A stretch of 22,952 nt of DNA, from positions 1 to 22,952 of the IMG/VR virus record IMGVR_UViG_3300031928_000027. One strand, 5' to 3'. Position numbers and translations under genes: made by a program. Source of the DNA: a virus. A model generated the notes under the pieces. It saw only the letters and a list, made by a program, of their open reading frames with translations. It was not told the origin of the DNA and did no database searches. This document shows, piece by piece, positions 2,987 to 22,952 of the stretch (positions within the stretch are counted from its first letter, which is position 1; every line of letters starts with the position of its first letter).

Positions 2987-3017
2987 ATTTTTGTATTCCT
3001 CATTTCATATATTTTAT

Positions 3018-3779: not shown

Positions 3780-3805
3780 TTATTAAAACCTCTTTTATTT
3801 ATTAT

Positions 3806-6139: not shown

Positions 6140-6210
6140 TTCTATGTACCCTCCATTATAATTATTTTATTTATAACTTATATATCCTTTAAAAGTATTA
6201 TTTTATTTGA

Positions 6211-6554: not shown

Positions 6555-6731
6555 TTATTCTTCTCCTTTCTTTAATTTATTTCTTAACCACTCTACATCA
6601 TAGATTTTCATATTTACTTGTCTATAATATGTAATTTTATTAGTGTCTTCAGATACGGTGTACATATAGTTTATTCTATCTCGGTAATTGTATTCTTCCT
6701 TGCTACATTCAGCCCAAGAATTATTATTCAT
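6555..6731 (-). CDS. 58-aa hypothetical protein
   Basis: The frame is open further upstream to a TTG at 6753-6755, but a near-perfect AGGAGGTGAT stands 4 bases before the ATG at 6729-6731, so the shorter form is chosen. It starts MNNNSWAECSKEEYNYRD, has a Tyr-rich middle (INYMYTVSED, ITYYRQVNMKIYD) and ends in a short basic helix (WLRNKLKKGEE). Its ribosome binding site overlaps the end of the preceding gene. No family recognised. Confidence 0.65.
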   Translation of the reverse strand: MNNNSWAECSKEEYNYRDRINYMYTVSEDTNKITYYRQVNMKIYDVEWLRNKLKKGEE

Positions 6732-6745
6732 ATTATCACCTCCTC

Positions 6746-7192: not shown

Positions 7193-7224
7193 TTATGTAT
7201 TTCGCCTCCTTAAATTATTATATA

Positions 7225-7283
7225 ATGTATATTTATGCAGTCTTATGTATAATTATACAGAGTATTAATGTATAATTATACAT
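7225..7283. repeat. Three tandem near-palindromes (operator-like)
   Basis: Copies at 7225-7239 (ATGTATATTTATGCA), 7245-7259 (ATGTATAATTATACA) and 7268-7283 (ATGTATAATTATACAT). The second and third contain the perfect 14-bp palindrome TGTATAATTATACA; the first differs from it at two positions. Starts are 20 and 23 bp apart, roughly two helical turns. They lie in the leader between the promoter at 7382-7410 and the gene starting at 7192. They could be a repressor operator cluster; in RNA, copies two and three could also pair into a 14-bp hairpin. Confidence 0.6.
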
Positions 7284-7293
7284 GATTATATGT

Positions 7294-7362
7294 TCACATG
7301 ATTTTCACCCCCTTTTTTATAGATTTGGGATTGTTTTGTGTGATTATTAGTTCGTAGTTCAT
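7294..7362 (-). CDS. Possible 22-aa leader peptide
   Basis: ATG (7360-7362) behind GAGAGG with a 6-base spacer, ending at TGA 7294-7296. The peptide begins MNYELIITQNNPKSIKKG. Its last codons contain GGGGGTGA, itself a possible ribosome binding site. It starts only about a dozen bases after the predicted transcription start and stops just before the tandem palindromes, so it could be a regulatory leader ORF. No protein function is suggested, and it may be chance. Confidence 0.3.
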   Translation of the reverse strand: MNYELIITQNNPKSIKKGVKIM

Positions 7363-7381
7363 CGCCAACCTCTCTTTAATT

Positions 7382-7410
7382 ATTATACTATTTTATTGTT
7401 TAAAAGTCAA
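7382..7410 (-). promoter_or_regulatory. Consensus sigma-A promoter (nucleotide-metabolism unit)
   Basis: On the minus strand TTGACT (7405-7410), a 17-base spacer and TATAAT (7382-7387). It lies just after the stop of the RecD-like helicase and points toward the leader ORF, the palindromes and the gene at 7192. A new transcript therefore starts here. Confidence 0.8.
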
Positions 7411-7414
7411 CATT

Positions 7415-9664: not shown

Positions 9665-12094
9665 TTAATACACCTCATAATCAAATAATATTTGCTCATC
9701 TTCGTTTGATTTTCCCCATTTACCATCTATCATTATACTTTTCTTTTGTGTTTTAAATTCTCTTACCTTTATCACAGAATATAATTGGAAGGGATTTTCA
9801 ATAAATATTTTACCATCTTTTATTTTTGTTTTTATCTCTTCTCCTGAATTAATTCTTCGCAATATAACATGAGGTTTTGTTTTATCTGAAAACTTTTTCA
9901 TATCAATAATTATATAAAAATTATCTCCTGCTTGCTCGTATGTAGTGAAAATTTCATCAGTGTATTCTAATTCATTCTTAATTTGGTCTTTAATTGAGAG
10001 TTGTTTGTCTTCGTATTTACTGGTTACTTCTTTAATATAACCTATCATATCTAATTTTCTATATTGGTTTTCTGTCTTATCTTGAGAATATTTAATTAAT
10101 AACTTTTCATCTAAGTCTAATTTCCCAATATCCTTTATTTTTATTTGTTTTCGTTTACTATGTTTGTTGAACAAGTCTAGTATTTGCATTAGTCTTTTAT
10201 TCTTTCCATAATCTATGAAGTAGTTTAATATGATAAGAATATTAACTTGCCTAGCACTTACGTCTACACTATCAAATATAAGTATTAAAAGATCAACAAA
10301 ATTCATCTCTTTATTACTATCAATAATATCAATAATAGAATCTCTAATTTTATTACTAATATATTTAATATCACTTTGTAGTTTTTGTTTCTTAACTTTA
10401 GGATCTAAAAAATCATGTAATCTTTTATTAGCCATATCTAAATAATATTGTTTGTTTAATTCTTCAGGTATGGTTTTATTAGTTACCTTTTCATTATAAA
10501 TAAAACAATGCTCTGGTGTATTACCTATCTTTTCTATTTTATCTTCTGATTTTACTTTAAATATCCCATAAGCATTTTCGTCTGCGCTTGCAAAAACCCT
10601 TAGAACTCGTTCATTAATTTTCATATCACCGTATAAAGCATGTTGATATAATCTAGAAATTTTAACTATTTTTTGATACTTAATTAAGTCATTACATTCA
10701 TTAATAGTATCTTCTATTTTTTTACCTTTCACAAAATAATTTATTAATGCATCATTTATAATGGGTAAATCATAATCAATAGCATTTAGTTTTTTTACAT
10801 ATGCCCCTTTAGATTTATATTTCCCTTTTGAGTCAATAATAATATAATTATTTACATCTTTTTGATATATTTTATTAAATATATCCCATTCTAAATTTAA
10901 TCTTGTTCTAATTTCCCATTCTTTAGCTACTGATTTTATTTTTTCAACATTATTAGCATTGTCAATTTTAAGAAACAATCCATCTGTATTTGATTGTATT
11001 AATTCGCAATAAGGTTCTATTTTCTCTATTAAATCAAGTAATAATAATTGTCCAGCGATACAAACATTATTGGCCATCAAAGGATCATACAGGTTATTAT
11101 ATTCATCCTTCATTGCACCATAAGTTGCATTTAATACAATTTTATAAGGTAATTGCATAGGATTTTTTGCTGCTTTAAGTTTTAAACGAGTATCCCTAAT
11201 CTTCTTGTATTTGCTTGTATCACTTACATTTCTACTTACATACCCATACTCTATCATTAATGCAGGATAAAGACTCGCTACATCACAACAAAGAATAATT
11301 CCTTCATATGAATAATTAGGTACTGCTCCGTGAATACCTCCCCAAGCAAATACATGTTCAACCCCCGCTACCTCTGTAATTAGACTCTTTTTATAATTCA
11401 TATTTTCTTTAACATTATACCAATCTAAAATATACTTATATTTTTCAGATAAAACTAATGTATCTGGTATATTTAATTCAAATTCGTCATCTCTTTCGCT
11501 TTTTAAAGCATCTAAAATTATAGCAGATAATTGAGCTTTTGTTTTTGTAAACATGGTCATAGGTAAATCAAACGCTTTAATTAAAGCTAACTGGCTGTCA
11601 AATTCTTCTTTTCTATGATTAAATACTTCAATTGTTTGTTCAACATCGTGTGTACAATATTCTAAGACTTCTTTTAATTCTTCAGTTGTCAATTTTCTAT
11701 TTATAGTAAAAGGTATCGAGGACTCTTTGATTTTAGACCCCATGAATCCTTCTAACTGTTTTAGACTATGAAAACCAGTAGCAATATCAAAATTATTCAA
11801 TGGGAAGTCATTTGATTTTCTTACTACTTGACTGCCTTTTTTATCGTTGATAATAATTTCATTGTTGATTATATATGGATTCATACCTGATAATATCCCC
11901 TTGAGTATATATTGGTCATAGTTTCTGGAGTTATAACCAATCCAGATATCTTCTTTATGGCGTTCATAAAAATTATGTAATTCATCAGGATTGTTTACAA
12001 TTTGTGTTTTTTCTTTTGTATCTTGATTTATTATTACTACTAACCATAAATGTTTAAATACCTCAAAATCATAAAAAAGAGTTTTCAAATTCAT
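9665..12094 (-). CDS. Family B DNA polymerase with 3'-5' exonuclease and extra C-terminal region
   Basis: The replicative polymerase, 809 aa. Exonuclease motifs: Exo I FYDFEVF with D9 and E11, Exo II GYNSRNYDQ (52-60) with D59, Exo III YCTHDVEQT (145-153) with D149. Polymerase motif A is CDVASLYPA (D270-x2-SLYP), motif B is K317-x3-N321-x2-YG (KIVLNATYG), and motif C is SNTDG with D370, carrying Asn where most family B enzymes have the first Asp. The recognisable core ends near residue 560. The last 220-250 residues form an additional module ending in an OB-like strand set and an MIDGKW...FDYEVY tail, which from memory resembles the tail of some Firmicute-phage family C polymerases. ATG start; it overlaps the upstream homing gene by 4 bases (ATGA). 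Confidence 0.88.
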   Translation of the reverse strand: MNLKTLFYDFEVFKHLWLVVIINQDTKEKTQIVNNPDELHNFYERHKEDIWIGYNSRNYDQYILKGILSGMNPYIINNEIIINDKKGSQVVRKSNDFPLNNFDIATGFHSLKQLEGFMGSKIKESSIPFTINRKLTTEELKEVLEYCTHDVEQTIEVFNHRKEEFDSQLALIKAFDLPMTMFTKTKAQLSAIILDALKSERDDEFELNIPDTLVLSEKYKYILDWYNVKENMNYKKSLITEVAGVEHVFAWGGIHGAVPNYSYEGIILCCDVASLYPALMIEYGYVSRNVSDTSKYKKIRDTRLKLKAAKNPMQLPYKIVLNATYGAMKDEYNNLYDPLMANNVCIAGQLLLLDLIEKIEPYCELIQSNTDGLFLKIDNANNVEKIKSVAKEWEIRTRLNLEWDIFNKIYQKDVNNYIIIDSKGKYKSKGAYVKKLNAIDYDLPIINDALINYFVKGKKIEDTINECNDLIKYQKIVKISRLYQHALYGDMKINERVLRVFASADENAYGIFKVKSEDKIEKIGNTPEHCFIYNEKVTNKTIPEELNKQYYLDMANKRLHDFLDPKVKKQKLQSDIKYISNKIRDSIIDIIDSNKEMNFVDLLILIFDSVDVSARQVNILIILNYFIDYGKNKRLMQILDLFNKHSKRKQIKIKDIGKLDLDEKLLIKYSQDKTENQYRKLDMIGYIKEVTSKYEDKQLSIKDQIKNELEYTDEIFTTYEQAGDNFYIIIDMKKFSDKTKPHVILRRINSGEEIKTKIKDGKIFIENPFQLYSVIKVREFKTQKKSIMIDGKWGKSNEDEQILFDYEVY

Positions 12095-12732
12095 TTCTCC
12101 TTTCTAAATTTTATATTTACGGGTTTTGTTAAAGCATCAATTATGCCCCAATTTCTTTTGAGTCTATCTTGTACAGTCTTATAGTTTATCTTATAAAAAT
12201 CACACCATTCGGATAATGTTCTTGTCTCATCATTTATTATTATGATTTTATTTGACCTTTTATTATTGCCTTGAACTTTCATCGTAGTCCATCTACAATT
12301 ATTTGATTCATAATTATCATTAACGTCAATTCTATCAATGCTTAATTTATCGGAATATCCATTCTCATTGGCCCAATTATAAAAAGTTATAAATCCATTG
12401 TCTGAATTTAACCACTCGTTGCATATTAGAATTCCTCTATTACCATAACTTTCATAACTTTCTACATTTGTATTATAACATCTACTTTTCATATCATTAT
12501 AAATCCTATATAATCTACTTTTTCTTAGTCCATGTGTAGTATTTTTTTCTATCATATATTCTGATTTAAAACATCCACAAGAAGTTACTCTATTTAATTT
12601 TAAGTCTCCAGAATTAACTACAGTATTACCACCGCAATCACATTTACAATACCATTTACCTTTTCCTTGATATTCCATTACTAACAATCTTCCAAATTTA
12701 CTATCTTTTAAATTTTCGTAATGTCTTCCCAC
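12091..12732 (-). CDS. HNH-type homing endonuclease-like protein with zinc ribbon and C-terminal helix-turn-helix
   Basis: A 213-aa protein of a group common in phages as free-standing genes. N-terminal cysteines (C29, C31, C33, C52, C54; CKCDCGG and TSCGCF) suggest a zinc ribbon. The central block has ESYGNRGILICNEW (92-107) followed by LSIDRIDVNDNYESNNCRW (130-148), the Asp/Arg/Asn-rich core of a divergent HNH nuclease. The C-terminus (about 170-205, RTLSEWCDFYKINYKTVQDRL) reads as a helix-turn-helix. The start is GTG with AAGGA upstream. It is wedged between the RecB-like nuclease and polymerase genes and ends in an ATGA overlap with the polymerase start. Homing is inferred. Confidence 0.75.
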   Translation of the reverse strand: MGRHYENLKDSKFGRLLVMEYQGKGKWYCKCDCGGNTVVNSGDLKLNRVTSCGCFKSEYMIEKNTTHGLRKSRLYRIYNDMKSRCYNTNVESYESYGNRGILICNEWLNSDNGFITFYNWANENGYSDKLSIDRIDVNDNYESNNCRWTTMKVQGNNKRSNKIIIINDETRTLSEWCDFYKINYKTVQDRLKRNWGIIDALTKPVNIKFRKEK

Positions 12733-12749
12733 TTATAATATCATCCTTT

Positions 12750-13901
12750 CTAGTTTAATAAATCCTTTAACCAACTATTATCATCTTCATCAACTTTATT
12801 ATCTGTATTCTTAAACATTCCCATTGCATCAAGATATGCCTTATATGGTGCATGAATTTTCGCTGAAAATCCATTCAAATTTGCTAAAAAATAACTCTCT
12901 GTATCCGTAACGTCTTGCCACCATATTTTATTATTAAGAGTCTTCTTATACTCAATTTGTTTAATTTTAATTTCTTCTACTGTTTTAATTATATCTTTAA
13001 TTAATTCTTGAACAGATTCATCATCTAAAGATATCTCAACATAACAATCTTTAATTACAAATTTCTCTTGAATATCCTTTGGTAAATGCTCTATCGAATT
13101 ATGTATAGACATTTTATCAAGATAGTTATCAATGTCATCTTCGCTAAATTTATTATCTGATTTCTTTAACCACATTTTAGCATTTGAAGACAAACTATTC
13201 CCAATATCATTTCTTTCGATAATACGACTCTTTACTTTCCCGTTAGCTTGCATACATTCAACTTCTACATATTTAAGGAATGCCCATCTAGCAACAATTT
13301 GATCCATAGGTATATTTAATTTCTGATGAATTCCATATGAATATAAGAGTAATTGTCCACGTTCTTTTTCTATTTTTTTGCCTTTATATATACTTGATGT
13401 TTTCCAGTCGGTAATTACTAAAATATCTTTCTCATTTCTTTTTTCCATGTGTATAGCATCAATGTAAGATTGTATTAATATATTATTTATTTTTATTGGT
13501 ACAAACTGCTCACATTTTAGATTATATGGTATCGGCTGATGATTCTTGAAGAAATGCCTCATACATGCTTCATATTTATTGCCTATTTTTTTATTTTTTT
13601 CTTCATCACTCCTATCGTATTTTAATCCTCCAATAGTAAATTCAAATAATTTCTCTTCAAATATTTCTATCATATCGGCATATGAAATTTCTTTATTGTA
13701 ATATTTCTCCAATATATCATGAGATGCATTACCAAACACACCATAAATAGAATCATGTCTATCTTCTGGTATTTTTAATATGTATTTAAGGAAAAAAGTA
13801 TAAGTATCCCCTTTATATTGATTATATTTAGACCATGAATAAATCTCATCACAATCTAATTTATTAGCAATTAATTGTACTTCTTCAAATTGTTTTCTCA
13901 A
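12750..13901 (-). CDS. PD-(D/E)XK nuclease of the RecB/Cas4-like family
   Basis: A 383-aa exonuclease-type protein. The catalytic set reads in order: H61 in GNASHDILEKYY, D148 in SYIDAIH, the central VITDWKTS with D165 and K167, and motif QLLLY (Q183, Y187). This is the RecB-type nuclease signature. The C-terminal cysteine cluster of Cas4 iron-sulfur proteins is absent, so I call it RecB-like rather than Cas4. The remaining C-terminal 190 residues are helical and charged, without a recognised domain. TTG start behind AAAGGA. It lies between primase and polymerase and probably processes DNA ends in recombination-dependent replication with the SSB-like and Sak4-like proteins. Confidence 0.82.
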   Translation of the reverse strand: MRKQFEEVQLIANKLDCDEIYSWSKYNQYKGDTYTFFLKYILKIPEDRHDSIYGVFGNASHDILEKYYNKEISYADMIEIFEEKLFEFTIGGLKYDRSDEEKNKKIGNKYEACMRHFFKNHQPIPYNLKCEQFVPIKINNILIQSYIDAIHMEKRNEKDILVITDWKTSSIYKGKKIEKERGQLLLYSYGIHQKLNIPMDQIVARWAFLKYVEVECMQANGKVKSRIIERNDIGNSLSSNAKMWLKKSDNKFSEDDIDNYLDKMSIHNSIEHLPKDIQEKFVIKDCYVEISLDDESVQELIKDIIKTVEEIKIKQIEYKKTLNNKIWWQDVTDTESYFLANLNGFSAKIHAPYKAYLDAMGMFKNTDNKVDEDDNSWLKDLLN

Positions 13902-13906
13902 TTTAA

Positions 13907-14965
13907 TTAATTCCTTTCTTTAATATATTTATTATGTTCGCTTGCGTCATATACTGTTTTATATTTGAATAGATATTCATATATTTTATTAGGCGCATCC
14001 ATCGGTGCTTGCTTGTCTTGTAGTAAATCATATTTATCATAAATATAAGAAACATTTCGTATGCCATAAAATTTTTCACACATACCTCTAATATGATGTA
14101 ACTCTATTCCTACATCCATTGCAATAACTATATCAACATTCAATCCTATCAAAATTCTTACTTGTTCCTCAGATATGTCATGACTCTCAATTGCAACTAC
14201 AGTTCCGTCTTTTCTGCTGTGTCGCTTAAGGACTGATTTTTGAGATTCTGCAATTACGCAATAAGTCGCCTCTTGTATAGTTTTATAATTTTCTTGCAAC
14301 CCATAAACATTAAGTGACTTAAAATATTTCTTTAATGGAAAGTATTTTGGGATGTCCAACATTTCCCACTCTCTAATTGTTGTTCTTCCCATAATTCCTA
14401 TGAAGTCATTCTCATCTCCGCACCAGAGCCTAGTCGGTATGACTATTCTCTTCTTTTCTGCGCTATACCCAATCTTAAATACATCACATGTGAAGGGTAA
14501 AATTCCCTCTTTAAGCCAAGAAATGTGAACCAGAGGTATATACTCTTTAATGATTTCATTGTCGAACAACTCAATATCATCCAAATTAACAATACATCTT
14601 TTTCTTTTAACCTTTTTGAATACATTCAATGGGTCTTTCTTCTCAACTATTACTTCTTTTGTTTTAAATTTATACTCTAGTCCAAATAATTTATGTAGAT
14701 ATTTATTTGCTTTCGGGAAAGATATATTTTTTATAGTCATTATTAACGTAAATATATCTCCCCTTATTGTTTCGCTATCTGATTGAAATATTTTTGTACC
14801 TAGTGTCTCTTTGTTAATTGCAATATTATTTTTAGATGAATGGTTTGGTAATCCACACCTAAATTCTTTAGTATATTCTTTTAGATCATGACACTCTAAA
14901 TCTTTAATTATTTCTTGCAATTTATTATTTTCTAATATATAAGTTTTTAACTCAATAGATGTCAT
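13907..14965 (-). CDS. DnaG-type DNA primase (CHC2 + TOPRIM)
   Basis: A 352-aa primase making RNA primers for the phage fork. An N-terminal zinc-binding region of CHC2 type is suggested by C25-H26, C37 and H42 (LECHDLKEYTKEFRCGLPNH), followed by RGDIFTLI (68-75), as in short phage primases. The catalytic TOPRIM fold shows E240 (CVIAESQKSVLKRH) and D284 (VIAMDVGIEL); the second Asp of the usual DxD is a Gly here. It lacks the C-terminal helicase-binding domain of bacterial DnaG, so it is about half the usual length. ATG start behind AGGTAGGTG. It lies downstream of the DnaB-like helicase with an endonuclease gene between them. Confidence 0.8.
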   Translation of the reverse strand: MTSIELKTYILENNKLQEIIKDLECHDLKEYTKEFRCGLPNHSSKNNIAINKETLGTKIFQSDSETIRGDIFTLIMTIKNISFPKANKYLHKLFGLEYKFKTKEVIVEKKDPLNVFKKVKRKRCIVNLDDIELFDNEIIKEYIPLVHISWLKEGILPFTCDVFKIGYSAEKKRIVIPTRLWCGDENDFIGIMGRTTIREWEMLDIPKYFPLKKYFKSLNVYGLQENYKTIQEATYCVIAESQKSVLKRHSRKDGTVVAIESHDISEEQVRILIGLNVDIVIAMDVGIELHHIRGMCEKFYGIRNVSYIYDKYDLLQDKQAPMDAPNKIYEYLFKYKTVYDASEHNKYIKERN

Positions 14966-15005
14966 TCAAGTATTTTCACCTACCTTTTAAAAGTCAATTA
15001 AAAGT

Positions 15006-15845
15006 CTATTTGTAATTTTTACATAATATATTTTCATATTGTCTCTTTAACTTATCTCTACAACCATTTTTGATATTCAAATGAAGGAAGTTATATTCTT
15101 CTAAATATTTTTCTAATATTAATTGTTTATGCTTGAAATATTCTATGAATGCATTAAAAGGATTATCAAAATATCCTAAATGCTCACATTTGCCATTATT
15201 TGAAATATTACACGCATATTTTTCTTTTATTTGATTGTAGGATACTCCTGGATATCCACTAGTATTATGCTTCTGAATATTTGTAAAAAAATTATTTATT
15301 TTCCCAGGTATAAATACACAATTTTGTAAATTATATATTTTTGTATCAGTTAAAATATCTTTATCAATTTCAAATTTAATACCTTGATGATCTATCATAT
15401 CTTGATAACCCAATATTTTAGGTATGCTTTGAATAAAATATTCAAAGCATAACCATCTATCATCTACAATACAATCTTTATATGTTTCTTCTTTGATATG
15501 AAATTTTTCATCATAACATCTTTGCAACATTGACACCCACATATTTATATATAAATTATGTTTAACATTTTTTATATATCCATAGTATCCTTTATTATAA
15601 ATGATTGGTTTAAGAGAATCTTTTAAATTACCATTTACAATACTACACCCAATAGCAATAGTTTGATAACCAGTATTTTTAAATTCAACTACATACCGTT
15701 TATTTCCTGTCTTAGAACCGTTTGTATCATATACACCTAAAACTTTATATTCTCCAAATCTTTTACTTGTAAAAGATTTTCCAATATATTTATTTCTATC
15801 ATTCTGATTTTCTATGTCTTTATTAATACTATACTTTTTAATCAA
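15006..15845 (-). CDS. HNH/AP2-type homing endonuclease-like protein
   Basis: A 279-aa protein. The frame is open to a TTG at 15861-15863 (285 aa), but GGAG (15854-15857) stands 8 bases before the TTG at 15843-15845, which is chosen. The N-terminal domain (GKSFTSKRFGEYKVLGVYD and a NTGYQT strand) and the middle block (MWVSMLQRCYDEKFH, later EIDKDIL and NCVFIPGKINNFF) match a group of phage endonuclease-like proteins. The C-terminus (about 205-260, NTSGYPGVSYNQIKEKYAC, then GYFDNPFNAFIEY) is an AP2-type DNA-binding domain. No canonical HNH triad is obvious, so catalytic competence is uncertain. It lies between helicase and primase genes; its ribosome binding site overlaps the helicase stop. 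Confidence 0.72.
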   Translation of the reverse strand: MIKKYSINKDIENQNDRNKYIGKSFTSKRFGEYKVLGVYDTNGSKTGNKRYVVEFKNTGYQTIAIGCSIVNGNLKDSLKPIIYNKGYYGYIKNVKHNLYINMWVSMLQRCYDEKFHIKEETYKDCIVDDRWLCFEYFIQSIPKILGYQDMIDHQGIKFEIDKDILTDTKIYNLQNCVFIPGKINNFFTNIQKHNTSGYPGVSYNQIKEKYACNISNNGKCEHLGYFDNPFNAFIEYFKHKQLILEKYLEEYNFLHLNIKNGCRDKLKRQYENILCKNYK

Positions 15846-15856
15846 AAATATTTCTC

Positions 15857-17386
15857 CTACCAATCTTGAGTAATATTACAAATTCCTAGTTCTTTATAAA
15901 TATTTAAAGATAAATCATATTCTGCAATAATTTGAAATTGATTAGTATTACCAAATCTATTTTTTGTAATAAATATTATAAGGTATCGTTTATCTTTATT
16001 TAACTTAAATGGTATCTTGGTTAAGCCTCTTTTCCCTTCAAGTTTATATGGTTTTATTTCGTGCTTCTCGTTTTCATATTCATCATCAAAAGGTTGTCTA
16101 ATCATAATATTAACAGACATTACATCTACGATTGATTTAGCCATCCCTATTTCATTATTGGTATAATATCTTAATTTAGTAGCAGTTTTACCCAATTGAT
16201 AAGTCACTAATAAACTGACATTTTTTGCCGATGGCTTTATTACATCATATATTTTTACCATATCTCTTTGCATTTCTAACCAAGTTTTATCAGAATTACT
16301 ATCCGCATTTTCTTTCAATGTATCTATGCAAAAATATTTAACATTTGCCAAAGAAGAATATTTTTTTATAATTTTGATAGCTATATCGGTCGTGTATTTT
16401 TCTAATGGTATGATAGTAATGTTTTTATTCTCTTTTTTGTCTTCAATCCATTTTGCACATTTTCTCAATAATTCCATTGTTAGATCATCAAAATTTCCGT
16501 CTCTTAATATGTATTTATGCATATTTTCTTTATAAACATTATTTGCCACCCATATGATCATTTCTTTTTGAATTTTAGTTTGATCTTCTTCGTTTATAAT
16601 AAAAACTATTTTTTCATTGTGTTTCAAGATAGAAGGGAAAAGCCAATTGATTGCAGTAGTTGACTTTCCTGCTCCAGATAGTCCTCCTAATCCAACTATA
16701 TTTCCTAAATTTAACCCTGATATTTCTTTATTTAATATAGTACAATTATCAAGAGGCAAACCAATATTAATTCCTTTATGCAACTTATCAATCAAATCAT
16801 TAACTCCAGAGCAAGCATTATAACTTTTTATATCATTTTCAATATTTATAAATATATGATTTAAGTGAGTTTCATAATAATCATATATTTGTTCAACGTT
16901 CATATCAGCAAATTCGCTTAATTTATCATACACTGGAAATTTTGCTTTTAATAATCCTAATACTGCATTCCATTTATACAACTCATCAATATAACCTATT
17001 AAATTCTCCTCTTTTACGTATTCTTTAGCTTTTTCAATTGTTTCATATCCACCATATTCTTCATATTTAGCTTTTAATTTATCATGTTTTTCAAGATATA
17101 ATCCAACTGTGATTTCATCTAATGACTGCTTTTTCTCTTTTATTACTACATCATACGCAATGCTAAAATAAACTCTCCAAATGTTATTGCTAAAATCTTC
17201 TATTCTCATTTTTTCATTGGTATAAATTAATTCTGGATTCTTAAAAAATATTGAAACAACATTTGCCTCAGTAGCTAATTTAAACTCTTTTACTTTTTTT
17301 ACCGCATCAATAAGTAATTGTTCATAAGGACTTATTTTTTTTTTAGCAGTAGTAGTTTTTGTCTTTGTTTTTGTAGCAACAACCAT
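15857..17386 (-). CDS. DnaB-like replicative DNA helicase
   Basis: A 509-aa RecA-fold hexameric helicase. Residues 1-190 match the helical N-terminal collar of DnaB proteins (early YEQLLIDAVKK; later a GGYETIEKAKEYV element). The ATPase domain starts around residue 210 with Walker A GGLSGAGKS (234-242), a glutamate-rich strand end FIINEED (262-268), Walker B YFCIDTLKE with D355, and a downstream QLGK element in the region of the usual Gln sensor. The N-terminus starts with a Lys/Thr-rich tail (TKTKTKTTTAKKK). ATG start behind GGAGG, directly after the TAA of the upstream gene. It unwinds DNA at the fork and would act with the primase encoded downstream. Confidence 0.87.
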   Translation of the reverse strand: MVVATKTKTKTTTAKKKISPYEQLLIDAVKKVKEFKLATEANVVSIFFKNPELIYTNEKMRIEDFSNNIWRVYFSIAYDVVIKEKKQSLDEITVGLYLEKHDKLKAKYEEYGGYETIEKAKEYVKEENLIGYIDELYKWNAVLGLLKAKFPVYDKLSEFADMNVEQIYDYYETHLNHIFINIENDIKSYNACSGVNDLIDKLHKGINIGLPLDNCTILNKEISGLNLGNIVGLGGLSGAGKSTTAINWLFPSILKHNEKIVFIINEEDQTKIQKEMIIWVANNVYKENMHKYILRDGNFDDLTMELLRKCAKWIEDKKENKNITIIPLEKYTTDIAIKIIKKYSSLANVKYFCIDTLKENADSNSDKTWLEMQRDMVKIYDVIKPSAKNVSLLVTYQLGKTATKLRYYTNNEIGMAKSIVDVMSVNIMIRQPFDDEYENEKHEIKPYKLEGKRGLTKIPFKLNKDKRYLIIFITKNRFGNTNQFQIIAEYDLSLNIYKELGICNITQDW

Positions 17387-17830
17387 TTACCATAATTCCT
17401 CCAGTTCCTTATTTACTTTTTTTACTTTCGCTTTATATTCAGCTCCCTCATGTATTTGATTTTCTAATTCTAATTTAATAGTCTTCTCTTCTGATTTCTT
17501 ACCATTTCTTAACCGAACTACAACATTATTTATTTCTTTATCAATTATTATCATTGCATAGTTAAATTTATGATTTTCATCTGCAAAAGCAGTTTTATTC
17601 TTTTCAAATGCTTGTAAGATTGATTGTCTGCAAAATTTAAAAGTAATTAAAATAGTTTTATAATCGTATTCTGCATTTACTTGTTGTTTTTTGTTTCTTA
17701 AGAATTGTCCTTTTATTAATCCTTGAAGGCGTAAAACCATATATTTAGGTAGTTTAATTGTTTTATCATAACCCATTATTTTTTCACGAACATATTCATA
17801 CAGTTCCACCCACTCTGGATTTTGTGCCAT
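17387..17830 (-). CDS. 147-aa unknown protein upstream of the DnaB-like helicase
   Basis: The frame is open to 17920 (177 aa), but that extension runs through a hairpin and looks non-coding. GGTGAT lies 6 bases before the ATG at 17828-17830, so the protein starts MAQNPEWVELYEYVREKI. It is a soluble, basic-acidic helical protein with a KLPKYMVLRLQGL element and a coiled C-terminal stretch (EYKAKVKKVNKELEELW). I recall similar proteins next to helicases in Firmicute phages but know no function. Its place directly before the helicase gene, with only a stop/start junction between them, makes a loader or helicase partner possible; that is inference from position alone. Confidence 0.72.
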   Translation of the reverse strand: MAQNPEWVELYEYVREKIMGYDKTIKLPKYMVLRLQGLIKGQFLRNKKQQVNAEYDYKTILITFKFCRQSILQAFEKNKTAFADENHKFNYAMIIIDKEINNVVVRLRNGKKSEEKTIKLELENQIHEGAEYKAKVKKVNKELEELW

Positions 17831-17857
17831 TGTAAAATCACCAACCTTCATGTTGAT

Positions 17858-17888
17858 AATAGGGATTATTAAAACAATAATCCCTATT
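17858..17888. other. Intercistronic hairpin, 13-bp perfect stem
   Basis: AATAGGGATTATT (17858-17870) and its exact complement (17876-17888) flank a 5-base loop. The hairpin sits just after the Sak4-like stop and before the ribosome binding site of the 147-aa gene. No T-run follows on either strand, so it is not a standard intrinsic terminator. RNA processing, mRNA stabilisation or control of the next gene's translation are possible. Confidence 0.7.
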
Positions 17889-17900
17889 ATATATGTGTAT

Positions 17901-18902
17901 TTATTTAAGCATTGTAGCAAATTCTAGAACTTCTTTTAGTTTTTCAATATCATTATTTCTAAAATCTTTGATGTTAATTTCTAAGTCCCTCATTTTTTTG
18001 CCGATTTTCTTTTGGCTCTCTGGAGACGCAGATTTGAGAGTATCTTTAATACTATCCGCAATCTCTTCTGCTTTTTCGTCTTCTATTTCCATTGACTCTT
18101 TATCTTTTTCAACTCCAGTAGAGTAGTCAACTGCTTTTTTCACACCGAACTTCTTTGTACTCTCCCACTTGCCTCTCCAAATTTCAAAAGATGGGTCTTC
18201 TAGAACTTCTCCTTTTTTAGTAACACCAGTTCTATCTTTATAAATTTTACCGAAATAAGTTACGTTACCTTCTTTATCTTCTTTTGTGAACATTTGTATT
18301 ACAATGTCAAAATCATACTCTGCCTTTTTAGCAAGGTCGGGAGCTTCACCGATTTTCACTCTGTCAATATTCTTATTCTTTTCTTCGGCAGTAGGTTCTC
18401 GAAATACGTCTTTTTGGTGAGCAACTTCTACAATCCATTTACCTTGGGATGAGAACATTATGTATGCCGTTTTTAAGGCTTGATTCCACCGTTTAATATG
18501 ACCCCAATCACGTTGACTTAAATTGAGATCATCCATATCAATATCTTTACCTTTTCTAACTTGTTTCCTTGACCTTTTTTCAACAACTTCGTATGCTGCT
18601 GATTGCATATTCTCATATAACTTTGTACCACTGTCAATTGCAATAGTATCAAATTGTGATAGTAATTCTTCGTCATTTAATTCATCAAAAGTTTCTTGAA
18701 CCTCTGAGGCAGAAGTTGTACGCATAACCCTAAGAATATTAGGATTATTCTCTAAATAATAGGTATTACCATCTTCACTATCTACTAAGTTAATATTTGG
18801 GAAAGTACCTGCAAATGTAGATTTACCCGATCCCTGCCCACCAAAAACCAAAACTTTTCCACCAACATAGCATAATACCTCTGCTTTATCTTGAAAACCC
18901 AT
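17901..18902 (-). CDS. Sak4-like RecA-fold ATPase (single-strand annealing/recombination)
   Basis: A 333-aa P-loop ATPase of the kind annotated as AAA_24/Sak4 in phages. Walker A is GGQGSGKST (21-29) immediately after the first strand, as usual for this short RecA-like family; Walker B is DTIAIDSGT with D90. Later motifs WIVEVAHQKD and the YDFDIVIQM and GKIYKDRTG strands are typical of the core. The C-terminal 80 residues are highly charged and likely helical (EIEDEKAEEIADSIKD). Sak4 proteins anneal or exchange strands, usually needing the phage SSB, whose likely gene lies directly upstream. ATG start behind a GGGGG run with a rather long spacer. The assignment is by motif and context. Confidence 0.82.
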   Translation of the reverse strand: MGFQDKAEVLCYVGGKVLVFGGQGSGKSTFAGTFPNINLVDSEDGNTYYLENNPNILRVMRTTSASEVQETFDELNDEELLSQFDTIAIDSGTKLYENMQSAAYEVVEKRSRKQVRKGKDIDMDDLNLSQRDWGHIKRWNQALKTAYIMFSSQGKWIVEVAHQKDVFREPTAEEKNKNIDRVKIGEAPDLAKKAEYDFDIVIQMFTKEDKEGNVTYFGKIYKDRTGVTKKGEVLEDPSFEIWRGKWESTKKFGVKKAVDYSTGVEKDKESMEIEDEKAEEIADSIKDTLKSASPESQKKIGKKMRDLEINIKDFRNNDIEKLKEVLEFATMLK

Positions 18903-18951
18903 ATTTTAATTTATCCCCCTTAACTTTTATTTTTTTTATTAATTTTATGAG

Positions 18952-18983
18952 TATATCAGGAGGGATTTTTACCTCCTGATATA
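18952..18983. other. Intercistronic hairpin, 12-bp perfect stem
   Basis: TATATCAGGAGG (18952-18963) pairs perfectly with 18972-18983 around an 8-base loop. It lies in the 94-base gap between the SSB-like stop and the Sak4-like start. No T-run follows in the minus-strand transcript (the following bases are A-rich), so it is not a classical terminator. The minus-strand arm itself contains AGGAGG, which would be buried in the stem. Confidence 0.7.
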
Positions 18984-18996
18984 TAGTTATAAGAGA

Positions 18997-20208
18997 TTAA
19001 TCGTCTAATAATTTCATCCAATCATCTTCACCGAGTTTTTCTTCTTCTAACTCTTTCTTATTGAAGCCTTTTTCAATCTTTGAAATTTCATCCTCTAAAT
19101 CTGTTTCTTTTTCCTCTTCATCAAGGAATTGAGATAAGAATACTAAATCAGATTCTTTATACTTATCCTTATTGATTGCTAAAACAGGAACTTTTGTTTC
19201 TCCTTCACCTTCAAATGTGATTAATGGTCGTTTGATAAGCATTCTTTTTTCTTTATTACCACCAATAGCACATTTATTAAGAGCCTCTTCCTCAGTGATA
19301 ACATTAAGTTCAATTAGTTCTTTAATGTCTTCTGGAAGATCGTCTAAAGTAATATTTACAACACTTGCCCCTTCTAACATTTCTCCTTCGACTGTGACCT
19401 CTACTAAAGTACCTTTTTTTGCAGGAGTAAAACACTTAGCAATAAGTTTTTTTGTATTTTCAGGTTTTACCTTATCTACTTCAAGTTCAAATGTTTTTGT
19501 AAAAGCAACGCTCTTCTTGATTTCCTTACCATCATATTTACCAACATAATCAACTACAAATCCTGTAATTGGGAAGGAAGCTTTTTCTTTATCTAATTTA
19601 CCAATCGCACCTGCATCACAAAGAATTGTTTGTGTAAATACGGCTTTATAATCTTCTGTTTCAGCTTTAGATAGGAATACAGACGTGAGTTCTTTTTTAA
19701 CAGTTACACTATCATTATACGCCTGATATTTTAATTTACCTTTCGCATTAATAACCATTCCACTTTCAAGATGTTGTTGCATGTATTCAATAGCATCATA
19801 TGCAGATAAGAATTTCTTAGTAAATGTTTTACCTTTTGTATCTTTTTCAAGACCAACTTTGATAAAACAGGACTCTGCTACAGATTCGAGAATTGTTTCA
19901 TCAAATCTATCATCCCAATCAATAGTGAATCTATTATCAAAGTCCTCTTGTTTCTTACCATCTACTTCTTTTGTACCGTGAACATATACAACATTATCAC
20001 GTTCTGAACCGTAACCACCCATCATATCTGAATAAATAACATTTCCATTTCCACAATCCACTCCAAGATTCATTTGATTCCAAACCCAATCAGACTTAGT
20101 GGATTCCTTATCCATTGTGAATGTGTAATCGTTTACTTTAGCTTCGCCGATGAGCATAAACTGTGCTTTGCCTTTTTTCAAACCTAATTGTTCTTCCTTT
20201 TTTGCCAT
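18997..20208 (-). CDS. Probable single-stranded DNA-binding protein
   Basis: A 403-aa acidic protein beginning MAKKEEQLGLKKGKAQFMLIGEAK. The N-terminal 150 residues read as beta-rich (VNDYTFTMDKES, WVWNQMNLGVDCGNG), consistent with an OB-type fold, and a second beta-rich region follows (about 215-300). The last 40 residues are strongly acidic and end GEDDWMKLLDD, like the acidic tails through which SSBs bind partners. It is the first gene of the replication operon, directly before the Sak4-like gene, the usual place of a phage SSB. It is much longer than bacterial SSB and has no motif I can prove, so the call rests on tail, strand pattern and context. ATG start behind GGAGG at 12 bases. Confidence 0.6.
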   Translation of the reverse strand: MAKKEEQLGLKKGKAQFMLIGEAKVNDYTFTMDKESTKSDWVWNQMNLGVDCGNGNVIYSDMMGGYGSERDNVVYVHGTKEVDGKKQEDFDNRFTIDWDDRFDETILESVAESCFIKVGLEKDTKGKTFTKKFLSAYDAIEYMQQHLESGMVINAKGKLKYQAYNDSVTVKKELTSVFLSKAETEDYKAVFTQTILCDAGAIGKLDKEKASFPITGFVVDYVGKYDGKEIKKSVAFTKTFELEVDKVKPENTKKLIAKCFTPAKKGTLVEVTVEGEMLEGASVVNITLDDLPEDIKELIELNVITEEEALNKCAIGGNKEKRMLIKRPLITFEGEGETKVPVLAINKDKYKESDLVFLSQFLDEEEKETDLEDEISKIEKGFNKKELEEEKLGEDDWMKLLDD

Positions 20209-20375
20209 ATGTATTTAATTCCTCCAATATATTTTATTTATTGATTATTACATTAACTGTGAAATATATTATAAATGAGGCGGGCTACACATTCGTTTAA
20301 TTGGTTTCCAACAATTACCTTTGTTTTTCAAACTAAACATTCCTTTCTAATTATTTATTTATCACTTATTACCTA

Positions 20376-20404
20376 AGTATACCACTTACCATCTAATAAA
20401 TCAA
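20376..20404 (-). promoter_or_regulatory. Extended -10 sigma-A promoter of the replication operon
   Basis: On the minus strand TTGATT (20399-20404), a 17-base spacer and TATACT (20376-20381), with TG one base before the -10 (TGGTATACT), the extended -10 form. It points at the SSB-like gene and the replication genes below it. Confidence 0.75.
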
Positions 20405-20465
20405 ACCAAATTTCCAACATCCCATAAAATCATGCTTTCATGCTATTTATGTATGAGTAAATGGA

Positions 20466-20490
20466 AGCATACACGAGCATTTGGAAGCAT
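20466..20490 (+). repeat. Three AGCAT repeats with exact 10-bp period
   Basis: AGCAT at 20466-20470, 20476-20480 and 20486-20490. The first and third are embedded in longer copies of TGGAAGCAT (20462-20470 and 20482-20490). Inverted copies (ATGCT) lie at 20432-20436 and 20440-20444. All are 30-90 bases upstream of the replication promoter. Helically phased repeats suggest a protein-binding array, such as an activator or repressor site or an origin iteron. Confidence 0.5.
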
Positions 20491-20591
20491 GAAGGAGATG
20501 AATTTTTATATAATTTCGGTTTATACTTTGTTAATGTGCATTATCCCTCCTCCACCAAATTCACCCTTTTTAAAATGATGTTTGATCAACT

Positions 20592-20984
20592 TTACTTGAT
20601 ATTCGTTCCCTCAACCCCTCGATTTTCTCTACCAATTGTCTGTTTCCTTAACCATAACATTGCTTCCTCTAGTTTAGTAATGGCAATAGCATTATCCCGA
20701 CAAGCAAACTCTGATTTTTGGAAGTGCTCAAGCCGTATAATGACCATTGCTATTAAGTCTTCATTGCATACTCCATTAACACCACACTCTTTAATTGGCC
20801 CCTCTTGAAAATGAATTTGGGATAATGGACTTATCGGTTCATGCTGTTTTCCTATTGATTTTACATATTCATAAGATGGTTCAACAACAAATCGATGTGG
20901 GGCATTGAATTTCATCTGGTCAGGATCTTCGTGGGACACAGTTGTGTATTTACTGGTTAATAGATCGTGTTTTAATTTTATCAT
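20592..20984 (-). CDS. acb2: Acb2/Tad1-domain protein (cyclic-nucleotide sponge, anti-CBASS/anti-Thoeris)
   Basis: A 130-aa protein whose C-terminal 70 residues match the Acb2/Tad1 helical-hairpin domain: HFQEGPIKECGVNGVCNEDL (58-77), then MVIIRLEHFQKSEFACRDNA (80-99) and ITKLEEAMLWLRKQT followed by RGVEGT (to 127). The known proteins form oligomers that bind signalling nucleotides tightly without cutting them: Acb2 takes CBASS cyclic di- and trinucleotides, Tad1 takes the Thoeris cyclic-ADP-ribose signal and some cyclic oligonucleotides. The effector is thereby starved of its signal. The N-terminal 55 residues are an extension (KFNAPHRFVVEPSYEYVKSI) that could form extra strands; ligand choice cannot be read from sequence. 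ATG start behind AGGAGGTGA. Last gene of a short promoter-led operon. Confidence 0.88.
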   Translation of the reverse strand: MIKLKHDLLTSKYTTVSHEDPDQMKFNAPHRFVVEPSYEYVKSIGKQHEPISPLSQIHFQEGPIKECGVNGVCNEDLIAMVIIRLEHFQKSEFACRDNAIAITKLEEAMLWLRKQTIGRENRGVEGTNIK

Positions 20985-20986
20985 TA

Positions 20987-21481
20987 TTATTTTTCACCTC
21001 CTACTTCAACCAATTTTTGATCAGCCAAATCTCCCTTTGCCTCAATACAACTCTCAATCTTAATTCTATCAGAAGGAACTAATGCTGGTTTCACACTCTT
21101 AAAACTACCAAATGTTCGATGTACAAGCATCGTCACGTGATATTCATTAAATCCCAAAATCTCAACAATCCTAGTGATCGGATTATATTTACTCTTTATA
21201 GTAAAAGTAACTTCAAATTTCTTATATTGTTTCATCGAATCAACCTTTTCAATTTCAATTGCTTCCTTTAATCCAGTAATAATATTGTTATAAACATCTT
21301 TATCTTTAACTTTATTAGGTGCAAGTCGTGGCTTAACATCATTATCTTTCATGAAATCAATAATTTTCTTATGTCCTTTTAACTCTTCTGGTTTTAACAT
21401 TTTGTATTCCTCAACTGTCATCATTCCCAAACGTTTTTTTGTTTTTGCTACTTTTCTTTTGCTGTTGTAAGATACTGTCAT
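20987..21481 (-). CDS. 164-aa unknown protein in the acb2 operon
   Basis: The frame is open to 21499 (170 aa), but AGAGGT lies 7 bases before the ATG at 21479-21481, so the protein starts MTVSYNSKRKVAKTKKRLGM. The N-terminus is strongly basic; residues about 25-85 look helical (VEEYKMLKPEELKGHKKII); the rest looks beta-rich (YKKFEVTFTIKSKYNPITRI, EYHVTMLVHRTFG). Basic character suggests contact with nucleic acid, but no family is recognised. It lies immediately upstream of the Acb2/Tad1-like gene, whose ribosome binding site overlaps its end, so the two are co-expressed. Confidence 0.72.
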   Translation of the reverse strand: MTVSYNSKRKVAKTKKRLGMMTVEEYKMLKPEELKGHKKIIDFMKDNDVKPRLAPNKVKDKDVYNNIITGLKEAIEIEKVDSMKQYKKFEVTFTIKSKYNPITRIVEILGFNEYHVTMLVHRTFGSFKSVKPALVPSDRIKIESCIEAKGDLADQKLVEVGGEK

Positions 21482-21522
21482 ATTTTTTACCTCTTTCATT
21501 TATTTATTATTTTCTTCATAAA

Positions 21523-21630
21523 TTATCTACTAACGTGTTTCATAATCGTAGCAACCAATTGTTCGTTACTAGAATCAATTTTCTTAACCGTAACTTTACT
21601 AACTAATTCACCGAACTTAAATGTTGTCAT
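21523..21630 (-). CDS. 35-aa peptide in the acb2 operon
   Basis: A gene read by hand: ATG (21628-21630) behind AAAGGGGGTGAATAA, an excellent ribosome binding site, to TAA at 21523-21525. The peptide starts MTTFKFGELVSKVTVKKI and ends TIMKHVSR. It is soluble, slightly basic and has no recognised family. The strong site and fit between two operon genes support it as real. Confidence 0.55.
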   Translation of the reverse strand: MTTFKFGELVSKVTVKKIDSSNEQLVATIMKHVSR

Positions 21631-21665
21631 TTATTCACCCCCTTTCAATTAATTTTATTTTACCA

Positions 21666-21854
21666 TTATAAATCATTAATATTACAAATAACGCTTTCTA
21701 CTTCACTTCGAGGTTCAATAGCAAATTCTTCATTATCTGAATTAATGCCATAGACTAGTTCTTCTCCAATTTCAATTACCATTACTCTTTGAGTTAATTC
21801 ACCTTCTATGTAAACGTCAACAATATCACCAATTTTAATATCTTTTGCGTTCAT
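21666..21854 (-). CDS. 62-aa small beta-barrel-like protein
   Basis: The first gene after the consensus promoter at 21899-21927. The product begins MNAKDIKIGDIVDVYIEGEL, continues with RVMVIEIGEELVYGINSDNE and ends in VESVICNINDL. The GDxVxV opening and Gly-turn-Gly spacing suggest an SH3- or KOW-like barrel, but no specific family is evident. ATG start behind AGAAAGGA with an 11-base spacer. Being first in the operon with the Acb2/Tad1-like gene, it may be an early host-interaction factor; that is inference. Confidence 0.7.
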   Translation of the reverse strand: MNAKDIKIGDIVDVYIEGELTQRVMVIEIGEELVYGINSDNEEFAIEPRSEVESVICNINDL

Positions 21855-21898
21855 AATTTATGTATTCCTTTCTGTTTTATGTAAATATTCTACTATTA

Positions 21899-21927
21899 AT
21901 TATACTACTTATATTCCATTATGTCAA
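21899..21927 (-). promoter_or_regulatory. Perfect sigma-A promoter of the acb2 operon
   Basis: On the minus strand TTGACA (21922-21927), a 17-base spacer and TATAAT (21899-21904): the exact consensus. It lies about 45 bases before the 62-aa gene and should drive the four-gene operon strongly with host RNA polymerase, as expected for early phage genes. Confidence 0.88.
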
Positions 21928-21990
21928 CTAATTTTATTTATTAATTATTACAACTGAAACTCCTGCCCCAAAAGGAATATGCTTTCCGTA

Positions 21991-22932
21991 TTAAATTATA
22001 ATCTCCACAGGGTACATTTTTAACTCATCCAATAATTCATTTACTCCAATTTTAGCAAGAGCAATATATTTGTCTGCTGCTCCATAATATATATATAATT
22101 CATCATTATATATATATCCTCCTTGTGGGAAAACAACATTATTTACATCGCCAATTAATTCATATTCTTCTTCAGGTTCAAGCAATGGATAAGGTATTCG
22201 CGCTATAACTTTTGAAGGATTCTGTAAATTGAGTAGTGCTACACTACTACGATAAACTAAATTCCTGTCAACTGCATGATATAATAATAACCATCCTTCC
22301 TTAGTTTTTATTGGTGGCAAACTTCCCCCAATTTTTTTATTTTCCCATAAAAATTCAGGTTCCATAATTGTAGATGTTTCGATTTTTTCATGGTAATTTA
22401 ACCAAGATTTTATTGAAAGAAGTTCGTCAAAACTATCAAAATAATCTAATTGGATGTTTGGTTCTATTCTGTGGATATAAGCGATTTTTCCATTAATTCT
22501 TTCGGGGAAAATAAAAGCATCTTTATCCCAACAATATTGATTAATAATTCCTAGTTTTGTATATTTTATAAAGTCATCCGTTTTAACTATTGCTACTCTG
22601 GCTTTTATACCATCGAACGCAGTATAAAAGATATAAAAACTACTCTCAAATTCAACTATTCTTGGGTCTTCACAGCCTTTAATCTCTTCTAAAAGTGTAG
22701 GGTATATTACTTTTTCATTTGAATCATACAGGATATTCATGTTTGTATCAAGTTTAGCATATCCAATATGTGATATATAATTTTCCTTATCTTTTATATC
22801 ACTATTTGTAGCTCTATAAAACATATGAACAATTTCATCTTTTAAGAGAACTCCAGGATTAAATCTAGCGAAACTTCCAAATTGATCTTTAAGTGGCCTC
22901 ATAATAATTCCCATTTTATTAAACTTAATCAA
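21991..22932 (-). CDS. GH130-family beta-mannoside phosphorylase/hydrolase-like enzyme
   Basis: A 313-aa five-bladed propeller enzyme of glycoside hydrolase family 130. Recognisable elements: FARFNPGVLL (21-30), the catalytic EDPR (88-91, D89 the expected general acid), KDAFIFPERINGKIAYIHR (137-155), GGSLPPIKTKEGWLLLYHAV (202-221) and the last blade NVVFPQGGY...YYGAADKYIALA (265-293). Family members phosphorolyse or hydrolyse beta-mannosides (beta-1,4 or beta-1,2). The length matches compact members. There is no signal peptide, so it acts in the cytoplasm. The start is TTG behind AAGGG at 10 bases. It lies upstream of the acb2 promoter, in a separate or read-through unit. Which sugar it acts on, and why a phage carries it, is unknown. 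Confidence 0.85.
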   Translation of the reverse strand: MIKFNKMGIIMRPLKDQFGSFARFNPGVLLKDEIVHMFYRATNSDIKDKENYISHIGYAKLDTNMNILYDSNEKVIYPTLLEEIKGCEDPRIVEFESSFYIFYTAFDGIKARVAIVKTDDFIKYTKLGIINQYCWDKDAFIFPERINGKIAYIHRIEPNIQLDYFDSFDELLSIKSWLNYHEKIETSTIMEPEFLWENKKIGGSLPPIKTKEGWLLLYHAVDRNLVYRSSVALLNLQNPSKVIARIPYPLLEPEEEYELIGDVNNVVFPQGGYIYNDELYIYYGAADKYIALAKIGVNELLDELKMYPVEIII

Positions 22933-22952
22933 TTAATATAATCCCTTCTTTC

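What the first reader, a model, noticed from the sequence alone, without database searches (positions are those of the whole stretch)
21991..22932. GH130 mannoside phosphorylase/hydrolase carried by a phage
GH130 enzymes are normally bacterial carbohydrate-use genes. This one has the EDPR catalytic motif and complete propeller blades, has no secretion signal, and stands beside early phage genes. It could release mannose-1-phosphate or a related sugar phosphate for DNA or nucleotide modification, or remodel a host glycan inside the cell.
Basis: partly seen in the sequence, partly recalled or inferred. Interest (0 to 1): 0.55.

Follow-up and report, generated by a model that had tools for sequence, protein, structure and literature searches.

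The report
Host sugar enzyme carried by phage
A piece of a bacterial virus carries an intact-looking copy of a host enzyme that probably cuts a mannose-containing sugar with phosphate; the enzyme itself is of a known kind, but a virus is an unusual place to find it.

Summary
In detail: window 21991-22932, on the MINUS strand, encodes a complete 313-aa GH130 five-bladed propeller (PF04041, 3e-56; model pLDDT 94.7). The closest solved structure is the Thermoanaerobacter beta-1,2-mannobiose phosphorylase (Z 42.7, 40% identity). Glu88 and Lys137 point to beta-1,2 linkages, and retained basic residues to a phosphorylase rather than a hydrolase. The window is a whole 22,952-base IMG/VR record; its other genes match a group of large phages (relatives up to 227-230 kb). 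The gene lies about 1 kb from a Thoeris anti-defence (Tad1) gene, in a stretch that the relatives searched do not share. Its codon usage is the phage's, not that of its nearest kin (Herbinix, Lachnoclostridium; 78-79% identical), among which it nests in a tree. I read it as acquired from a Lachnospiraceae host. No relative was found in IMG/VR; the 12 hits among phage records are unannotated, and the four opened look bacterial. No GT2/GT4 glycosyltransferase was found in the window or 11 related records, so DNA modification is unsupported. Likely role: intracellular phosphorolysis of host beta-1,2-mannosides to mannose 1-phosphate. The record ends 20 bases upstream of the gene, so host flank or chimera is unlikely but not excluded.

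The parts
21991..22932 (-). GH130 gene, 313 aa, predicted beta-1,2-mannoside phosphorylase
   Evidence: ORF; PF04041; fold; NCBIfam
22942..22949 (-). Shine-Dalgarno-like AGAAGGGA, nine bases before the TTG start (read by eye)
   Evidence: one search prints the 20 bases upstream
22660..22671 (-). EDPR motif, residues 88-91; Asp89 is the proposed proton donor
   Evidence: role from PMC4599007
22522..22524 (-). Codon of Lys137, aligned with the lysine that goes with beta-1,2 specificity
   Evidence: role from PMC4599007
21899..21927 (-). Promoter-like site TTGACA-17-TATAAT (12 of 12) between GH130 and the next genes; would start a transcript that leaves GH130 out
   Evidence: the region as a whole has no excess of promoter-like sites (12 found, shuffles mean 15.1, sd 4.2)
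21666..21854 (-). 62-aa ORF between GH130 and Tad1 side, function unknown (context)
20987..21499 (-). 170-aa ORF, function unknown (context)
20592..20984 (-). Tad1, Thoeris anti-defence 1 homologue (context that marks this end as phage)
   Evidence: 8kbb E=6.2e-37; PF24729 below its cut-off; phrog_2428
18997..20208 (-). Phage gene of phrog_2367, first gene shared in order with the large-phage relatives (context)

Best explanation
A large phage of Lachnospiraceae took up a host GH130 gene and carries it as a single-gene cargo next to an anti-defence gene. The protein stays in the cytoplasm. It binds a terminal beta-1,2-linked mannose; Asp89, through the sugar's 3-OH, protonates the leaving oxygen, and inorganic phosphate held by basic residues attacks the anomeric carbon, giving alpha-mannose 1-phosphate and a shortened chain. 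During infection it would draw down the host's beta-1,2-mannoside pool without spending ATP and feed mannose phosphate to sugar metabolism and so to nucleotides. Shown by computation: family, intact fold and site, phage context, bacterial ancestry. Inferred: activity, substrate, direction, timing, host and benefit.
For: Fold and residues. Phage context: replication genes, large-phage relatives, Tad1. Codon usage of the phage: rank 12, 9 and 11 of 19 window genes, above every host gene tested at three loci (14, 12 and 10 genes); GC3 18.2% against 28.0, 35.3 and 28.8%. Ancestry. Constraint: dN 0.15-0.21 with dS not computable (saturated). In L055 and L056 the orthologue closes an operon with a nucleotidyltransferase and a GT4.
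Against: The record ends 20 bases upstream. No related phage record holds the gene (0 of 50) and none was found in IMG/VR. The four genes at this end have no match in 40 stretches of the phage relatives. No partner enzyme is in the record, and a beta-1,2-mannan has not been shown in any likely host. The reaction is reversible. The promoter-like site lies after the gene, so its own expression is unknown.
Confidence: 0.52

Rival explanations
1. The last kilobase is not phage DNA: the contig is a chimera, or crosses the end of an integrated phage into the host chromosome, and the GH130 gene is an ordinary host gene.
For: Record end 20 bases upstream; gene absent from 50 related virus records; nearest kin all chromosomal; one relative, G002, has a 187-aa tyrosine recombinase; a low-GC host could share the phage's codon usage.
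Against: Codon usage and GC3 are the phage's; Tad1 lies about 1 kb away; same strand as the phage genes; similarity to the Herbinix locus does not run past the gene; no integrase match in 8 of 9 records, G003 of 230 kb among them.
Confidence: 0.13
2. The enzyme is phage-borne but serves to deplete or alter a mannose-containing host surface glycan or its precursor, so as to block other phages or change adsorption.
For: In bacterial kin it stands with sugar nucleotide and GT4 genes that could make a surface glycan; neighbour is an anti-defence gene.
Against: No evidence that the glycan is on the surface; the enzyme has no export signal in the model.
Confidence: 0.15
3. A defence-related role: the gene sits in an anti-defence stretch and acts on a sugar or sugar nucleotide used by a host defence.
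For: Neighbour Tad1.
Against: Nothing but position; the active site is that of an ordinary mannoside phosphorylase.
Confidence: 0.08
4. It is a beta-1,2-mannosidase (hydrolase), not a phosphorylase.
For: By Glu88 it belongs to the GH130_NC group, which holds hydrolases as well as phosphorylases (PMC4599007; PMC4264767).
Against: Basic residues of the Thermoanaerobacter phosphorylases are kept; NCBIfam 229 against 94.5 bits; Z 42.7 with 40% identity against 35.2 with 25% for the mannosidase 5a7v. The window was not aligned residue by residue with 5a7v.
Confidence: 0.05
5. It supplies mannose 1-phosphate for glycosylation of phage DNA or nucleotides.
For: Product chemistry only.
Against: No GT2 or GT4 match in 12 records; no guanylyltransferase or GT4 like those of L055 in the window or the relatives searched; no base-modification gene named in the window.
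Confidence: 0.03

Closest known systems
Teth514_1789 and Teth514_1788 of Thermoanaerobacter sp. X-514: GH130 beta-1,2-mannobiose and 1,2-beta-oligomannan phosphorylases (PDB 7fip, 9fj8)
   Same: Fold (Z 42.7 and 42.5), mannose-recognition residues, Glu before the Asp, lysine of the beta-1,2 enzymes, basic residues
   Different: 40 and 35% identity; theirs lie in a bacterial cluster with transport and GDP-mannose genes, this one stands alone in a phage record
GH130 of Herbinix (L055), Lachnoclostridium UBA1308 (L056) and Anaerocolumna AGMB13025 (L057)
   Same: 79, 78 and 69% identity over the whole protein; same clade
   Different: Chromosomal; in L055 and L056 last gene of an operon; higher GC3. 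L057 also stands alone, after a transposase-like ORF (by eye)
BT3780-type GH130 beta-1,2-mannosidases (5a7v)
   Same: Fold and beta-1,2 residues
   Different: Lower similarity by every measure; they are hydrolases with a glutamate pair in place of basic residues
GT108 mannogen enzymes of Leishmania (6q50)
   Same: Five-bladed propeller, Z 25.4; act on beta-1,2-mannan
   Different: 14% identity; another CAZy family
Phage auxiliary metabolic genes in general
   Same: Single host metabolic gene with phage codon usage
   Different: I met no report of a GH130 or other glycoside phosphorylase in a phage in the searches (listings, and passages of three papers)

Membership tests
CAZy GH130 (PF04041) | Profile match above the curated cut-off over the whole domain | tested here: met
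   191 bits against 26, positions 34-318 of 320
CAZy GH130 (PF04041) | Five-bladed propeller with invariant catalytic Asp | tested here: met
   Model and Z 42.7 to 7fip; Asp89 invariant in 15 aligned sequences
beta-1,2-mannoside phosphorylase | Glu before the Asp and the beta-1,2 lysine | tested here: met
   Glu88 invariant, Lys137 present in 11 of 15 aligned rows (the window included; Arg in the other four), aligned with Lys in 7fip and 9fj8; rule from PMC4599007
beta-1,2-mannoside phosphorylase | Basic phosphate-binding residues kept | tested here: inconclusive
   His154, Arg155, Lys200 align with basic residues of 7fip and 9fj8, but which of them bind phosphate was not checked on a structure
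beta-1,2-mannoside phosphorylase | NCBIfam equivalog cut-off | tested here: not met
   Best model NF052550, 229 bits against a cut-off of 450
beta-1,2-mannoside phosphorylase | Phosphate-dependent release of alpha-mannose 1-phosphate | not testable with these tools
   Needs an assay
Phage auxiliary metabolic gene | Lies within phage DNA | tested here: inconclusive
   Phage genes on one side, phage codon usage; record ends on the other side
Phage auxiliary metabolic gene | Recurs in related phages | tested here: not met
   0 of 50 virus records; none in viral contigs by protein, profile or motif

The most novel reading that the evidence does not exclude
A glycoside phosphorylase as phage cargo: a large Lachnospiraceae phage taps a bacterial, mannogen-like beta-1,2-mannan store, made and recycled by a guanylyltransferase, GT4, GH76-like and GH130 gene set that recurs in several Bacillota and one candidate-phylum genome, and turns it phosphorolytically into sugar phosphate during infection.
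Probability: 0.3. Interest if true: 0.68.

Novelty: new member of a known kind. Interest (0 to 1): 0.4.

Why it matters
If true, phages of fibre-degrading anaerobes can reach a reserve or precursor sugar of their host by phosphorolysis, which yields a sugar phosphate without ATP. It would also point to an intracellular beta-1,2-mannan economy in Lachnospiraceae, testable by looking for the polymer. As it stands the enzyme is an ordinary GH130 and the claim rests on a single contig.

Tried and rejected
Other phages with GH130: tblastn in 50,697 phage records gave 12 records, all under 36% identity and without annotation. I opened 4 of 12 (H1, H2, H5, H11) and scanned 10 neighbouring ORFs. Three show bacterial sugar-utilisation surroundings (H2: solute-binding protein, LacI, GH5; H11: Ig domains of GH2 type, apiosidase, MFS; H5: amylase, DUF1861, phosphomannomutase). 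H1 has one scanned neighbour (DUF4010/MgtC) and is judged bacterial on that alone. The other eight were not opened. IMG/VR scans with the protein, with profile A1 and with one motif found no relative; the tool may leave out records very near the window.

Viral structure library: the best of 69 matches at E <= 0.001 is at TM 0.66 and 18% identity, and the rows shown look like other propellers; a missing match proves nothing.

DNA modification: no GT2 or GT4 match in 12 records. Integrase: 1 of 9 records (G002) has a 187-aa recombinase, so temperate life is not excluded for the group.

Host: polymerase matches in 13 of 397 genomes of the Anaerocolumna family group, best 51%; none in the four genomes that hold L055, L056, L057 and L085. 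DNA searches in 34 and 397 genomes (window 2953-22952, partly capped lists) gave gene-level matches and many short hits at E about 1e-4 to 1e-2 that look like chance; I did not check for CRISPR arrays. One search covered the same 34 genomes.

Rows dropped: one search took 50 of 53 viral loci (cap; L027, L029, L044 left out). The tree has 32 rows: the window, 22 of the 31 loci (L069, L077 and L079-L085 left out as cut, fused, short or far), two plasmid genes, and 7 of the 20 loci. Alignment A1 has 15 rows. The wish to see the mannosidase 5a7v aligned residue by residue failed: queries L159 and L160 did not list it among the five alignments shown.

Literature: searches (17 papers; 1 paper; 12 papers) were searched in the held open-access library. 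In one search none of the 15 listed papers holds GH130. Of the listed papers with GH130 and a phage term I opened passages of three: PMC6784887 (few auxiliary genes, none to redirect carbon, in moose rumen viruses), PMC6039544 (the term is a gene name, gh1_30), PMC11066082 (bacterial GH130). 'Not in print' holds for these searches only.

Full report
WHAT IS THERE. The window is a whole IMG/VR virus record of 22,952 bases. The ORF of the finding is on the minus strand, 21991-22932, with a TTG start and 313 codons; 200 shuffles of the window never gave a stop-free run above 209 codons. PF04041 matches with 191 bits over positions 34-318 of 320. No PHROG family matches at E <= 0.001. The record ends 20 bases upstream of the start.

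ENZYME. The AlphaFold2 model, made from a 15-sequence alignment, has mean pLDDT 94.7. The closest solved structures are the Thermoanaerobacter beta-1,2-mannobiose phosphorylase (7fip, Z 42.7, 1.5 A over 288 residues, 40% identity) and the 1,2-beta-oligomannan phosphorylase Teth514_1788 (9fj8, Z 42.5, 35%); the beta-1,2-mannosidase 5a7v is at Z 35.2, 25%. By sequence, too, 7fip and 9fj8 lead. Papers seen in passages or single sections give the residue code: Asn28, Asp92 and Asp281 of Teth514_1788 recognise mannose, and a Glu before the Asp marks the GH130_NC group (PMC4264767, passages); a lysine, Lys199 in BT3780, goes with beta-1,2 linkages, and the hydrolases lack the three basic residues that bind phosphate and have a glutamate pair (PMC4599007, passages and sections 19-20). 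The window protein has Asn25, Glu88, Asp89, Lys137 and Asp287, and His154, Arg155 and Lys200 aligned with basic residues of the Thermoanaerobacter enzymes. Lys137 is kept in 11 of 15 aligned rows, with Arg in the other four. NCBIfam prefers beta-1,2-mannobiose phosphorylase (229 bits, below its cut-off of 450) to the beta-1,2-mannosidase model (94.5 bits). I conclude a probable beta-1,2-mannoside phosphorylase; chain-length preference cannot be told, and the phosphate site was not checked on a structure.

IS IT PHAGE DNA. For: the rest of the record is a phage replication and nucleotide block (DNA polymerase, RecD-like helicase, DnaB-like helicase, PD-(D/E)XK nuclease, B12-type ribonucleotide reductase, dUTPase). 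Much of it lies in the same order in related virus records, among them two of 227 and 230 kb. Of 10 large proteins of G002 (227 kb) scanned, one is an NAD-dependent ligase, one terminase-like, one a nicotinamide phosphoribosyltransferase. Gene 20592-20984, about 1 kb from GH130, is a Tad1, the Thoeris anti-defence protein (8kbb, 6e-37). GC3 of GH130 is 18.2%, against 28.0, 35.3 and 28.8% in its three nearest bacterial relatives. A codon-usage likelihood ratio puts it at rank 12, 9 and 11 of 19 window genes for the three hosts and above every host gene tested (14, 12 and 10 genes), while the bacterial orthologues score on the host side. DNA similarity to the Herbinix locus covers window 22033-22934 and does not run past the gene. 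Against: the record ends just upstream; no related virus record has the gene (0 of 50); the last four genes, Tad1 included, have no match in 40 stretches of the phage relatives; and a low-GC host could share the codon usage. I put phage carriage at about 0.85 (judgement).

WHERE IT CAME FROM. The closest genes are in a Herbinix MAG (79%), Lachnoclostridium UBA1308 (78%) and Anaerocolumna AGMB13025 (69%). In the 34 genomes of that genus group the two best matches are these (E about 1e-169); the next has E=3.5e-37 and 34% identity. In 397 genomes of the Anaerocolumna family group the best are 69% and 49% (the latter with a stop inside), then E=2.4e-44 and 39%. So this orthologue is sparse even in bacteria, although 94 of 397 genomes hold some GH130 match. 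The tree groups the window with the first two at 96/93 and Anaerocolumna outside at 97/91, with a longer branch for the window (0.24 against 0.058). dN is 0.15-0.21 and dS could not be computed (saturated), which I read as constraint. A 74,797-base contig of a divergent relative of the phage is part of genome G469 of the same genus group, with replication genes at one end and a terminase-like gene at the other; this hints at a Lachnospiraceae host but may be a binning accident.

WHAT ITS KIN DO. In L055 and L056 the gene closes an operon: a nucleotidyltransferase best matched by mannose-1-phosphate guanylyltransferase (273 bits, below its cut-off of 440), a GT4, a weak GH76-like protein (below cut-off), GH130. 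Relatives of the GT4 and the GH76-like protein both lie near GH130 at 9 of 31 bacterial loci (L055, L056, L063, L066, L067, L068, L073, L074, L075); L071 has both with the GT4 cut by the contig end, L070 the GT4 alone, L085 only remnants. Many of the 31 are short contigs. L057 has neither: there the gene stands alone. Thermoanaerobacter has a comparable cluster, for which a salvage route to GDP-mannose was proposed (PMC4264767). Leishmania uses enzymes of related fold on a beta-1,2-mannan reserve, mannogen (PMC8950772, passages). The gene order suggests that the donor makes and recycles a beta-1,2-mannoside; whether reserve or surface glycan is open.

MECHANISM PROPOSED. Cytoplasmic phosphorolysis of terminal beta-1,2-mannose: Asp89 acts through the 3-OH of the sugar (proposed for related enzymes, PMC4599007), phosphate attacks, alpha-mannose 1-phosphate leaves. 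Host enzymes would carry it to glycolysis and nucleotide sugars. The record holds only this one enzyme of the pathway, which fits drawing down a pool rather than building one; the reaction is reversible, so this is inference. The perfect promoter-like site after the gene could start the Tad1 side separately; the stretch as a whole has no excess of such sites. DNA modification finds no support.

NOVELTY. The enzyme is an ordinary GH130; the carrier is unusual. Three scans of 2.9 million viral contigs found no relative. Of 12 hits among 50,697 phage records the four opened look bacterial; eight were not opened. Papers: listings and passages of three. New member of a known kind; interest 0.40. 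Odds of the best reading were set at 0.52, as residue-level proof of the phosphate site is missing.

Noticed in passing
window 20592-20984 (-): A Tad1 (Thoeris anti-defence 1) homologue, closest to PDB 8kbb (E=6.2e-37); the phage probably meets Thoeris-type defences.
   Followed up: partly
window 21899-21927 (-): A perfect sigma-70-type site (12 of 12) right after GH130, in front of the small ORFs and Tad1.
   Followed up: no
window 9665-12094 (-) against G002, G004, G006, G008, G009: The polymerase matches G004 end to end (83%) but four other relatives only over residues 574-809 (48-50%), inside ORFs of about 1030-1100 aa where seen: the polymerase core seems to have been exchanged within the group.
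   Followed up: no
window 3018-3779, 12091-12732, 15006-15863 (-): Three ORFs that look like homing endonucleases (by eye; only the first has a sub-threshold HNH_3 match); similar ORFs sit among the replication genes of relatives.
   Followed up: no
L150:7901-11068 (G004): Ribonucleotide reductase of a relative with LAGLIDADG and a weak intein-splicing match, so probably an intein.
   Followed up: no
L005:4638-5985: ORFs that resemble TerD and TerC tellurium-resistance proteins in a relative's accessory region (by eye, not scanned).
   Followed up: no
L085:5199-8180: Remnants of the nucleotidyltransferase, GT4, GH76-like and GH130 genes in a Clostridiaceae MAG: a decayed operon.
   Followed up: no
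L057:6464-8939: In Anaerocolumna the GH130 orthologue stands alone after a transposase-like ORF (by eye), a second solo copy besides the phage's.
   Followed up: no
G469 contigs C69 and C19 (L178-L183): A phage contig related to the window's group is part of a genome of the Herbinix genus group; it may give the host or be a binning accident.
   Followed up: partly
L055-L056, L063, L066-L068, L073-L075: A GT4, GH76-like and GH130 gene set recurs in Lachnospiraceae, Syntrophomonadaceae, Thermosediminibacteraceae and one Shapirobacteria genome: a possible beta-1,2-mannoside pathway.
   Followed up: partly
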